A stretch of 64,000 nt of DNA from Mitsuokella jalaludinii DSM 13811 (lineage in GTDB: Bacteria > Bacillota > Negativicutes > Selenomonadales > Selenomonadaceae): assembly GCF_000702905.1 (NCBI RefSeq), contig NZ_JNKR01000003.1, forward strand, positions 62,001 through 126,000, in the 5' to 3' direction. This document shows, piece after piece, positions 4,227 to 17,493 of this stretch (its first letter is position 1; each line of letters begins with the position of its first letter). The notes under the pieces are model-generated. The model searched no databases and had not been told where the DNA came from. It saw only the letters and a list, made by a program, of their open reading frames with translations. The position numbers were made by a program, and so were the translations under genes.

Positions 4227-4307
4227 ATGAAGAAGATTATCAAGCGCGTATTCAAGTCCTATGCAAACGTAGAGGCTCTGGGCAAAGTCATCAGCTGGAA
4301 TGCATGA
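4227..4307 (+). CDS. Candidate small protein, 26 aa, Lys/Arg-rich amphipathic
   Basis: A short frame too small for most gene callers. It begins with MKKIIKRVFKSYAN and ends ISWNA. The ribosome site is an optimal AGGAGG at 4214-4219, 7 bases before the ATG. A matching promoter (4146-4174) lies upstream and a possible small terminator (4362-4380) downstream, so the three parts form a stand-alone transcription unit. The peptide has a basic N-terminal half that could form an amphipathic helix. It could be a membrane-surface microprotein, a toxin-like peptide, or the visible part of a dual-function RNA. I know of no family for it. Function unknown. Confidence 0.5.
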   Translation: MKKIIKRVFKSYANVEALGKVISWNA

Positions 4308-4361
4308 TTCTGCCAGATAAAGCGCATATGAAAGAATAGTACGAAATGAGACGGAGAACAC

Positions 4362-14903: not shown

Positions 14904-15613
14904 TTACGTCTCATCATTCTTCTTGTCGAATAGGTACAGATTATGCTTGCTGTTGGCAATCATGCGGATATAGCGCTCGTACTGGTGCAGGACATCGGTC
15001 AGCAGTTCCTCGCGGCGCATGTACTTGAGGCTGTAGCCGCGCCTGCCGTCGGCAAAGTAGCAGACCGGCTCGAAGTCATCTACCGTATCCATCTTCGGGA
15101 GGAGGCTGGAGGAGACGACCATCTTGGAGACGGCGTGTTCCTTGCAGCCGACACCGTAAAGGAAGTCGCGGAGACGGCCGCTCTCGACGATGAGTTCGCA
15201 GTACGGGAGCCCGTCTTCTTCACCGCTGCGGACCTGCGCCGCAATCCCGTTCTTCGCGAATTCCGCCTGTAGTCCACCAGGCCCAGTACATGATGGTCCA
15301 GCTCGTGAACCACTCTTCCTTGGTGCTCTCATAGGCAAAGGTGCGGAAGGACAGCTCTACGATGTGCGTCAAGTAGTAGCCGATGTTCTCGGTAAAAGAA
15401 GGCCACGCTGAGGATGTAGATCCAGCTGAAGGAATTGAACAGTTCCTGCTTGAGGAAGGTCATGACGGCCTTCGCGCCCTCAGGCACCACGATGCATCCC
15501 AGTGCAACTGATGCAATGATGATAAGACTCGGTATAACGACGTTATATTTATTATAAATAACAAATAATAATATTTTTATTTTTAATAAATTTCGCTGTT
15601 CACTCTTTCTCAC
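14904..15613 (-). pseudogene. Decayed BCCT-family (betaine/choline/carnitine) transporter
   Basis: Three pieces of one transporter lie in three frames. First, from about 15540 down, an N-terminal span (VVIPSLIIIASVALG...FSWIYILSV). Second, from about 15390 to 15265, a mid-protein piece: TENIGYYLTHIVELSFRTF and EEWFTSWTIMYWAWW, the conserved BCCT tryptophan helix. Third, to 14904, the BetT-like cytosolic tail (LQAEFAKNGI...VLHQYERYIRMI). A full protein would be over 600 aa; only about 230 codons remain, so most membrane spans are gone by two internal deletions with frame changes. The IS607-like remnant abuts its 5' end. Not functional. Confidence 0.85.
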
Positions 15614-15614
15614 A

Positions 15615-16871
15615 TCAGGCGCAGCCTGAGCTGCGACGAGCGCTCATCGAAAGAGTTACTACAGCTGGGCGTAACGCTACGCCCTCTATCCCGTCTGCGT
15701 TCACATTCGGGAATACTTTTCGCATGATCTGGTAGGCACCATTGACATCGGCATTGATGCGTTGGCCATCGTTTGCCAAGAACAGGCCGCGATGAACCCG
15801 GCGTGATTTGTCATAGCAGGCTTTGATCGGGGCCTCGCCATCCAAGAAGGAAGTGCCACTCGTATAGTTCTCCTCAGTCAGCACGACCTTCATGCCGATT
15901 GACTCGGCCTTGTACTGCAGCATCTGGATGAAGCGGGCGAAAGGCAGCTGCACAAAGCTCTGGTTGACCCTGTGGCCGAGGTTCGCTTCCTGTTTCCAGC
16001 CCTTGTTCTTGCCGATGACCAGCACCGACACATCCTGTTCTGTGCACAAGTCGATGACCTTGCGGCTTGCCTTATGCAAGTAATCCTCAACCTTGCGATT
16101 CCGCTTCGCTGTGAGCCGCGCGATTCGCTTCGATGAATGGCATCCATTCATCCGCTCACAGATGCTCCTGCGCTTGGCCATCTGCTTGTTGTAGTACTGG
16201 TTGACTGACTTGAGAGGCGTCCCCTTGAAAAGGACAGGGCGTTTGCCTGTATTCCATGCCAGCGCCACGAGATTGTCGATGCCGATGTCGATAGCGGCAT
16301 ATTTTCCATTGTCCGCTTTCTCATCGACCTCTGGAATCTCATAGACGAGTTCCAGATCGATTTCCCCGCCATGCGGGATGATGCGTGCCTGCTTGAACAC
16401 AGCATCTGGCTGACTAGAGAAGATGGTCTTTACCGTGAATCCTTGAAAGACTCTTGGAAAGCGAATGACTCCGTCCTTGAGCTTGCAGTTCTGGTTCGTC
16501 AGGACCAACGGGAAATAGCCGTCCTTCGGTTTGTACTTCGGCAGTTTAGGACGTCCCTTGTACTTCTCGGGATGGGCCTTCCAGTCCTTGATGGCCGCGA
16601 AGAACGATGCCCAGTTCTTGTCCAAGATACGCAGCGTCTGCTGTGCCGTCTGTGCAGTCGGCATTTCCCGATAGTCGGGGTACTTTACGTCAGCCTTCAG
16701 CAAGCGGTCGACTTCGCCATAGCGCAGCCATTTGCTATCCTCGAGGAACGCCTGACGGATCAGGAAGTTTCCATGATTGTAGAGGTTCTTGGAACGATGG
16801 CAGAATTCGCGCAGCATGGCGTAGAACGGCGACGATGGTTTAAGCCGGTGGTGTTCCACTCGTTTCATCAT
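15615..16871 (-). CDS. tnpB: TnpB, RNA-guided RuvC-like nuclease of an IS607-type element
   Basis: A 418-residue OrfB/TnpB protein. RuvC-like catalytic positions are intact: Asp in AAIDIGIDNL, Glu in VVLTEENYTS, and Asp in RINADVNGAYQI. The usual zinc ribbon (two CxxC pairs) between the Glu and the last Asp is missing; that stretch reads SGTSFLDGEAPIKACYDKSRR, as in a known zinc-less subgroup. The ribosome site AAGGAGG lies 9-10 bases before the start, and the start overlaps the tnpA stop. The guide (omega/reRNA) would be expected at the 3' end of the gene and just past it (about 15540-15700). No frameshift is seen, although the transposase is dead. Confidence 0.92.
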   Translation of the reverse strand: MMKRVEHHRLKPSSPFYAMLREFCHRSKNLYNHGNFLIRQAFLEDSKWLRYGEVDRLLKADVKYPDYREMPTAQTAQQTLRILDKNWASFFAAIKDWKAHPEKYKGRPKLPKYKPKDGYFPLVLTNQNCKLKDGVIRFPRVFQGFTVKTIFSSQPDAVFKQARIIPHGGEIDLELVYEIPEVDEKADNGKYAAIDIGIDNLVALAWNTGKRPVLFKGTPLKSVNQYYNKQMAKRRSICERMNGCHSSKRIARLTAKRNRKVEDYLHKASRKVIDLCTEQDVSVLVIGKNKGWKQEANLGHRVNQSFVQLPFARFIQMLQYKAESIGMKVVLTEENYTSGTSFLDGEAPIKACYDKSRRVHRGLFLANDGQRINADVNGAYQIMRKVFPNVNADGIEGVALRPAVVTLSMSARRSSGCA

Positions 16872-17155
16872 CCGCTATCGCCTCCTTGATTGATGGTATA
16901 GCCATTTGCAAAGCAGAACTGCTTGAGCAGCTGGATCTGGTTTTTGAGGTCAGCCTTCTGCTTTGGCGTAGAGACACTGGCATAGATGTAGGTTTTGCGC
17001 TGCATGTCTTTGTTGAGGAACTTGTAGACATCTTCCTCGTTGTAGTCGTAGTGGCTGTTCGGCATGACATGGACACGGATAATCCCTGTCTTGACATACT
17101 TCGTGAGCGTCGGCCTAGAAACCTGCAAGATGTGAAGAACATCTTTAGCAAACAT
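16868..17155 (-). pseudogene. tnpA: Truncated IS607-family serine recombinase TnpA
   Basis: Only 95 residues of a protein normally about 190-215 aa. The N-terminal MerR-like helix-turn-helix is whole (VLHILQVSRPTLTKYVKTGII, then DYNEEDVYKFL). The resolvase domain begins YIYASVSTPKQKADLKNQIQ and stops after GYTINQGGDSG. The rest of the catalytic domain is lost. The conserved Arg of the YxRVS motif is Ser here, while the catalytic Ser remains. Truncation and substitution both predict no recombination activity. Confidence 0.85.
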
Positions 17156-17493
17156 ATGGAAATCACCTTTTTCTATAGATAATTATAACGTGTTTTAATA
17201 TAATAACCTATATATTTTGTGAGGTTGATTTTATATTTTTACTATATTTTTCTGTAAATTTGTCCGATACAATAAAAAGCCCCCTTATAAAGAAATAGAC
17301 GGAGCCTGTCGGTGAACAGACTCCGCCTTGTAATCCAATATGTTTTTTCTATTATATCAGATTTACAGTTTAAATGCAAATTCTCACATCCATCGGATAC
17401 ACTGTACTGGTTTGATGTCTTGGTTTTTTATCCCCGATGTGATAGACTTCGGTATGAGATAGATCCAAGTGATCGTATTTTGGGAGGGTGACG
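17156..17493. other. AT-rich intergenic region beside the IS607 remnant (338 bp)
   Basis: About 17160-17280 is very AT-rich and may contain the element's left end and a minus-strand -10 (ATTATA at 17182 on the plus strand). An imperfect hairpin, CGGAG-C-CTGT / ACAG-A-CTCCG, spans 17300-17325 without a T run. A weak plus-strand promoter (TTGGTT at 17420, 17-bp spacer, TAGACT at 17443) precedes the next gene. No ORF seen. Confidence 0.5.

What the first reader, a model, noticed from the sequence alone, without database searches (positions are those of the whole stretch)
15615..17155. IS607-like remnant with dead recombinase but intact, zinc-less TnpB
TnpA is cut to 95 residues and has Ser for the conserved Arg of the YxRVS motif, so the element cannot move itself. 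TnpB keeps all three RuvC acidic residues, a good ribosome site and no frameshift over 418 codons, and it lacks the usual zinc ribbon. A TnpB that outlives its transposase may be a recent relic, may be rescued in trans, or may be taken over by the host as an RNA-guided nuclease. The guide RNA should overlap the 3' end of tnpB near 15540-15700.
Basis: partly seen in the sequence, partly recalled or inferred. Interest (0 to 1): 0.65.

Follow-up and report, generated by a model that had tools for sequence, protein, structure and literature searches.

The report
IS607 element with disabled transposase
A small bacterial jumping gene has lost its moving enzyme but keeps an apparently intact RNA-guided cutting enzyme aimed at its own empty landing site; such half-dead elements are known, and this one offers a clean natural case to test how they persist.

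Summary
The genome is a Mitsuokella (sister to M. multacida DSM 20544). The element is an IS607-family insertion at window 15540-17243 (minus strand), in codon 10 of a BCCT transporter gene; M. multacida carries the empty site. A 302-bp deletion cuts TnpA after 89 residues (R60S too). TnpB (418 aa) is open. Like all 14 aligned sequences it has no CxxC zinc ribbon; its canonical RuvC glutamate position is glycine, so a full triad needs the alternative glutamate E334. The right end encodes a well-supported reRNA; the adjoining 20-nt guide matches, in three genomes at up to 3 mismatches, only its own flank and the empty allele. In the genus 0 of 5 assessable copies has a working-looking TnpA (three different deletions, two catalytic Ser-to-Ala), yet 5 of 5 keep tnpB; 7 of 7 assessable loci in other genera have full-length TnpA. 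tnpB dN/dS is 0.08-0.14. Copy-specific changes: dead stubs 6 nonsynonymous, 0 synonymous; tnpB of the same copies 24 and 42 (p=0.004), though a longer three-copy comparison shows no difference (p=0.29). Best reading: a non-autonomous derivative with a probably still selected, self-preserving TnpB-reRNA cassette, not a host-adopted nuclease. New member of a known kind.

The parts
15540..17243 (-). whole IS607-family element, about 1704 bp; one base (T) of ambiguity at the ends
   Evidence: Empty site AAAAATAT|CGTTATACC in M. multacida (G001:C6 near 375197) against filled AAAAATAT|AGTAAA...AACGT|CGTTATACC; ends shared with other copies.
17156..17243 (-). left end, ahead of tnpA
   Evidence: Conserved in the 5 genus copies that have this region.
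16868..17155 (-). truncated tnpA: 89 TnpA residues plus 6 out of frame; R60S; net loss of 302 bp relative to M. multacida copy A
15615..16871 (-). tnpB, 418 codons, RNA-guided nuclease of the DIG (D-hydrophobic-G) plus alternative-Glu type, without zinc ribbon
15540..15749 (-). reRNA/omega-RNA scaffold overlapping the last 135 bases of tnpB (stop included) and running to the right end
   Evidence: 16-sequence alignment and covariation, fold z = -5.0, low synonymous divergence in codons 384-399.
15520..15539 (-). guide (host flank) CGTTATACCGAGTCTTATCA
   Evidence: Perfect match to the empty BCCT allele of M. multacida next to ATAT; no other place with 3 mismatches or fewer in 3 genomes.
17244..17272 (-). 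first codons of the interrupted BCCT gene (TTG start at 17272), ending in the candidate TAM ATAT
   Evidence: Intact 666-codon frame in M. multacida begins at the matching TTG, Pfam BCCT 564.9 bits; ATAT precedes the left end in 10 of 11 copies read by eye.
14904..15539 (-). rest of the BCCT gene, further decayed by two internal deletions of about 670 and 668 bp

Best explanation
This is a non-autonomous, internally deleted copy of an IS607-family element. Shown by sequence: the tnpA deletion, the precise insertion in codon 10 of a BCCT gene that is intact in the sister species, an open and evolutionarily constrained tnpB, a conserved structured reRNA, and a guide that matches the empty allele. 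Inferred: TnpB is made from the element, binds the reRNA, and cuts unoccupied copies of the BCCT site (TAM probably ATAT) that enter or arise in the cell, so that repair from the occupied copy keeps or spreads the element. This self-preserving activity needs no TnpA, so tnpB can stay under selection after TnpA is lost.
For: tnpB open in 5 of 5 copies that have the whole region (one, MmC, with a 27-base in-frame deletion), dN/dS 0.079-0.136 in 10 of 10 pairs. Changes unique to one copy: tnpA stub codons 1-51 of the two deleted copies of this genome 6 nonsynonymous to 0 synonymous; tnpB of the same two copies 24 to 42 with the same four copies compared (Fisher one-sided p = 0.0038; 21 to 38, p = 0.0036, with five copies); the same stub codons in the two full-length TnpA copies 5 to 13 (p = 0.0034). 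With MmB added, stub codons 1-42 give 5 to 0 against tnpB 35 to 58, p = 0.0097. reRNA: 98.6% of cells paired and 8 pairs with two-sided changes, 0 of 500 shuffles reach either. Guide matches the empty BCCT allele 20/20 and no other place at up to 3 mismatches in 3 genomes. Structure model closest to ISDra2 TnpB, Z 21.4. Published for another IS607: inactivating TnpA's catalysis did not change the advantage of an IS-bearing plasmid, inactivating TnpB's did (PMC11870625, passages read).
Against: The stub test rests on six substitutions. Over stub codons 1-87, where only three copies can be compared, the window stub shows 7 nonsynonymous to 9 synonymous against 31 to 63 in its tnpB, no difference (p = 0.29); this comparison also counts changes older than the deletion. 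The stub's low pairwise dN/dS (0.058, 0.186) says that death was recent. Synonymous distances differ between tnpA and tnpB of the same copies (MmA-MmC 0.74 against 0.29), so gene conversion may blur branches. Copies C3b and MmB seem to have lost host DNA next to the right end, so their guides may no longer fit an original site. A sixth copy (C27) has lost the 5' half of tnpB. ATAT as TAM rests on one clean empty site; the counterpart of MmB's left flank in this genome reads AAAGGAATC, not AAAGGATAT. No expression or activity data.
Confidence: 0.55

Rival explanations
1. Plain recent relic: tnpA was deleted lately, tnpB is intact only because it has had little time to decay, and no selection acts on it now.
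For: Low pairwise dN/dS also in the dead stub over codons 1-87 (0.058 against MmA, 0.186 against MmC). Three-copy comparison of stub and tnpB shows no difference (7:9 against 31:63, p = 0.29). The host gene beside it is decaying by deletion, and C27 has lost half of tnpB.
Against: Changes unique to the two deleted copies differ between stubs (6:0) and tnpB (24:42), one-sided p = 0.0038. The three large internal deletions (302, 324 and 295 bp net) all fell in tnpA, none in the twice longer tnpB.
Confidence: 0.3
2. Non-autonomous element moved in trans by a related TnpA. Compatible with the best explanation, but here the reason for survival would be transposition.
For: Both ends kept; TnpA-defective copies sit at different sites; two other IS607-type elements with full-length TnpA are present in the genome (C2 and C51).
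Against: The C2 and C51 elements are of a different, zinc-bearing subgroup; no full-length, catalytically complete TnpA of this subgroup was found in the three genus genomes. Whether C2 or C51 TnpA recognises these ends was not tested.
Confidence: 0.3
3. Host-adopted RNA-guided nuclease serving the cell.
For: Constrained tnpB without transposase.
Against: Different site in each copy; the window's site is empty in M. multacida; no match of this TnpB in the third genus genome at E <= 1e-50; guide fits only the element's own site.
Confidence: 0.03
4. Nuclease-dead, TldR-like RNA-guided repressor.
For: The canonical RuvC glutamate position is glycine in all 14 aligned sequences.
Against: D195, D375 and the alternative glutamates E333/E334 are invariant; an alternative glutamate is described for a large group of TnpBs and Fanzors (PMC10711439, section 23).
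Confidence: 0.04

Closest known systems
IS607-family elements with RAGATH-18 reRNA (ISFba1; PMC11061315, passages read)
   Same: IS607 TnpA plus TnpB plus a structured right-end RNA; [quoted passage not shown]
   Different: No RAGATH-18 match here; here the reRNA overlaps the tnpB coding sequence, there it does not; different candidate TAM (ATAT against AGGAG or GAGGG).
Alternative-Glu (Ealt) TnpBs of the D-hydrophobic-G clade (PMC10711439, section 23 and passages read)
   Same: DIG motif, and a glutamate with six residues between it and the place of the first zinc cysteine.
   Different: No CxxC zinc ribbon in any of 14 aligned sequences; found here in Selenomonadaceae and some other Firmicutes.
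ISDra2 TnpB (8exa, 8h1j)
   Same: Best structural match (Z 21.4, 331 aligned, rmsd 3.8).
   Different: 15% identity; canonical glutamate and zinc ribbon there (recalled).
TnpB plasmid gene drive (PMC11870625, passages read)
   Same: Proposed mode of persistence: cut the unoccupied site, without need of active TnpA.
   Different: Shown there on plasmids in E. coli with another IS607; here only inferred, for a chromosomal site.

Membership tests
IS607 family element | tnpA serine recombinase with N-terminal HTH followed by tnpB | tested here: met
   tnpA stub matches positions 2-90 of NF033518 (below cut-off because truncated); full-length TnpA in MmA, MmC and 7 loci of other genera.
IS607 family element | working serine recombinase in this copy | tested here: not met
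   Deletion in the window copy; 0 of 5 assessable genus copies has both full length and the catalytic serine. So it is a defective, non-autonomous member, not an autonomous IS607.
IS607 family element | precise insertion, no long target duplication | tested here: met
   Empty site in M. multacida.
TnpB RNA-guided nuclease | family profile and fold | tested here: met
   NF040570 208.7 bits (cut-off 100); ISDra2 TnpB Z 21.4.
TnpB RNA-guided nuclease | RuvC D-E-D triad | tested here: inconclusive
   D195, E333/E334 (alternative place) and D375 invariant in 14 of 14; canonical Glu place is Gly. That E334 is the catalytic one is read from its spacing; geometry was not measured (no coordinates).
TnpB RNA-guided nuclease | right-end reRNA with guide from the flank | tested here: met
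   Sequence and covariation evidence; no transcript data.
TnpB RNA-guided nuclease | guided DNA cleavage | not testable with these tools
   Needs a bench assay.
Fanzor / pro-Fanzor | DPG motif with Ealt | tested here: not met
   DIG in the window protein; DIG or DLG in the 14 aligned.
TldR (nuclease-dead TnpB regulators; definition recalled) | loss of RuvC catalytic residues | tested here: not met
   D195, E333/E334, D375 present, if the alternative glutamate is accepted.
RAGATH-18 reRNA group | RAGATH-18 RNA next to tnpB | tested here: not met
   No RAGATH-18 match in window 15300-17400 at E up to 5.
Cas12f CRISPR effector | associated CRISPR array | not tested
   Weak PADLOC Cas12f profile hits; arrays were not searched for.

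The most novel reading that the evidence does not exclude
In Mitsuokella this element has turned into a TnpB-only selfish gene: transposase function is lost in every assessable copy (three different deletions, and a Ser-to-Ala change at the catalytic position in the two others) while the TnpB-reRNA cassette is kept, and it persists between cells by cutting empty alleles and being copied by recombination. The full-length Ser-to-Ala TnpAs of M. multacida (dN/dS 0.10 between the two) might even be kept as DNA-binding regulators.
Probability: 0.15. Interest if true: 0.55.

Novelty: new member of a known kind. Interest (0 to 1): 0.3.

Why it matters
Why tnpB genes are so often found without a working transposase is an open question. 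Here one genus gives several different transposase losses with tnpB kept, a dead stub as an internal control, and a sister species carrying the exact empty site that the guide matches, so TnpB-only persistence can be tested directly.

Tried and rejected
Host domestication (different sites, empty in the sister species) and nuclease-dead regulator (acidic residues kept) were considered and set aside. The E-to-K change at residue 295 (GWKQE/GWKQK), which differs between copies with and without tnpA deletions, looked at first like loss of a catalytic residue; the alignment shows that the position is not conserved, so this was dropped. TAM support from further empty sites was sought: the MmA left flank found no good match (score 19), and MmB showed host DNA missing at its right end and a left-flank counterpart without ATAT, so the ATAT proposal rests on one empty site plus left-end flanks read by eye (10 of 11; L053 reads CCAT). 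No DNA match in plasmids in 'near' mode; in phages 58 records, all under 60% identity. Rfam showed no known reRNA. No paper in the library holds both 'Mitsuokella' and 'TnpB'; that is the only search behind this statement. A published census of rearranged TnpB catalytic sites is recalled, not read.

Dropped rows: L023 and L026 were left out of the protein alignment because their translations held a stop (then 58). For the pair count I kept 27 of the 35 pairs that RNAalifold predicted (left out: the closing helix between the first and last columns and one small helix near the 5' end). Of 11 loci of other genera at 58-66% identity (L051-L059, L067, L068), 7 loci from 6 genomes show a complete upstream region, each with full-length TnpA reading YARVST; L052 is cut by a contig end and shows a partial TnpA; L057, L058 and L059 begin inside tnpB. 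A profile made from five TnpAs found no IS607 TnpA at E <= 1e-3 in the Anoxybacillus loci L022-L028, L031 and L032 (L032 is a tnpB fragment at a contig end); other transposase types were not searched for there.

Full report
What is there. On the minus strand lie a 95-residue TnpA stub (16868-17155) and an open 418-codon TnpB (15615-16871). TnpB is named by NF040570 guided_TnpB and Pfam OrfB_IS605 plus Cas12f1-like_TNB; the stub matches only the first half of the IS607 transposase model.

Boundaries and site. M. multacida has the empty site: AAAAATAT|CGTTATACC against AAAAATAT|AGTAAA...AACGT|CGTTATACC here. The element is therefore 15540-17243, with one base of ambiguity. The insertion lies in codon 10 of a TTG-started 666-codon frame that is intact in M. 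multacida and is a BCCT transporter (Pfam PF02028, 564.9 bits; the C-terminal remnant in the window hits the BetT model weakly). In the window the rest of that gene has lost two internal stretches of about 670 and 668 bp.

Copies. In this genome a second copy (C3b, L005:1193-2880) is 89% identical in DNA and 93% in TnpB; a third (C27) keeps only the 3' part of tnpB beside what looks by eye like an IS21-type gene. M. multacida has three copies with TnpB at 89-91%. G002 has none at E <= 1e-50, only a 174-base left-end piece at a contig edge. DNA searches with the whole element showed no copy with tnpA kept and tnpB lost, the G002 piece being undecidable.

TnpA. The 5' alignment shows three different internal deletions in tnpA, net 302 bp (window), 324 bp (C3b, with a frameshift as well) and 295 bp (MmB). 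MmA and MmC keep full length but read YARVA where the three structure sequences shown, of IS607-type recombinases, read YARVS, so the catalytic serine is alanine; that this serine is the nucleophile is recalled knowledge. So 0 of 5 assessable copies has a working-looking TnpA. In other genera of the order, 7 of 7 loci (6 genomes) with a complete upstream region have full-length TnpA with YARVST. In this genome a further IS607-type locus of another subgroup (C5) also has a 5'-truncated tnpA before a 402-aa zinc-bearing TnpB.

Selection. tnpB dN/dS (Nei-Gojobori) is 0.079-0.136 in all 10 pairs of the five copies. That alone does not show selection after TnpA loss: the dead stub itself has 0.058 and 0.186 against MmA and MmC over codons 1-87. 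Changes unique to one copy say more. Stub codons 1-51, four copies compared: window 3 nonsynonymous and 0 synonymous, C3b 3 and 0, MmA 1 and 8, MmC 4 and 5. tnpB, same four copies: window 12 and 26, C3b 12 and 16, MmA 5 and 29, MmC 12 and 19. Stub 6:0 against tnpB 24:42 gives one-sided p = 0.0038; without the reRNA part (codons 1-380) p = 0.0054. Stub codons 1-42 with MmB as third deleted copy: 5:0 against 35:58, p = 0.0097. Against this: over codons 1-87, where only window, MmA and MmC can be compared, the window stub has 7:9 and its tnpB 31:63, p = 0.29; this count includes changes from before the deletion. Unequal synonymous distances of tnpA and tnpB also hint at gene conversion. So continued selection on tnpB is suggested, not proved.

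Active site. Fourteen aligned sequences (window included) have no CxxC in the zinc-ribbon region; D195, E333, E334 and D375 are invariant; the canonical glutamate position is invariant G287. Yoon et al. 2023 (PMC10711439; author name recalled; passages and section 23 read) describe an alternative glutamate with six residues between it and the first zinc cysteine, in two clades, one D-hydrophobic-G and one DPG (Fanzor-like). The window protein has DIG and E334 at that place, so it fits the first clade. AlphaFold2 on the 14-row alignment gave mean pLDDT 79, with segments under 50 at 291-297, 337-344, 355-363 and 393-418; best match ISDra2 TnpB, Z 21.4; mimivirus Fanzor2 Z 17.6. Catalytic geometry was not measured.

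Guide RNA. Across 16 copies (6 Mitsuokella, 10 other Selenomonadaceae) the last codons of tnpB hold invariant stretches. Codons 384-399 have dS 0.37-0.46 against four relatives for which codons 1-200 are saturated (4 of 4) and codons 201-380 saturated (3 of 4) or 3.29. In the 27 pairs counted, 98.6% of cells pair and 8 pairs have two-sided changes, both reached by 0 of 500 shuffles; further pair types are reached by 9 of 500; slid controls fall to 32-51% paired. The structure was derived from this alignment, which favours it over slid versions. The single-sequence fold has z = -5.0. The adjoining 20 bases match only the own flank and the empty BCCT site of M. multacida in three genomes at up to 3 mismatches. 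ATAT precedes the left end in 10 of 11 copies (read by eye) and in the one clean empty site, so it is the candidate TAM; the counterpart of MmB's flank lacks it.

Verdict. A TnpA-dead, TnpB-intact IS607-family copy. Published precedent: in RAGATH-18-linked IS607 loci 30% of TnpAs are broken (PMC11061315, passages), and TnpB gives IS-bearing plasmids an advantage for which TnpA is not needed (PMC11870625, a preprint, passages). The finding is real and tidy but of a known kind.

Noticed in passing
window 17297-17380 (minus strand); L007; G002:C53:15638; G001:C5:276667: Ahead of the BCCT start lie a promoter-like site and a terminator-like hairpin (AGGCGGAGTCTGTTCA...AGGCTCCGTCT) about 25 bases before the TTG start, nearly identical in M. 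multacida; short similar stretches occur elsewhere in all three genus genomes. Possibly a shared attenuator-type leader.
   Followed up: partly
L018 (MmA) and L020 (MmC), tnpA codon 62: Both full-length TnpAs of M. multacida carry the same Ser-to-Ala change at the catalytic position although their tnpA genes differ at many synonymous sites (dS 0.74, dN/dS 0.10): shared ancestry, conversion or parallel change.
   Followed up: partly
L005 2879 onward; L019 7321 onward: Copies C3b and MmB seem to have lost host DNA right next to the right end, so that left and right flanks come from different places; this would change the guide.
   Followed up: partly
window 14904-15539: The interrupted BCCT gene lost two internal stretches of almost equal length (about 670 and 668 bp), 124 bp apart.
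   Followed up: no
window 4228-4308 (plus strand): Short frame of 26 codons (MKKIIKRVFKSYANVEALGKVISWNA, read by eye) behind a ribosome-site-like AGGAGG in an AT-rich gap; may be a small peptide gene.
   Followed up: no
L014 1667-2875: A second IS607 subgroup in the genome (canonical Glu, zinc ribbon) also has an open tnpB behind a 5'-truncated tnpA.
   Followed up: partly
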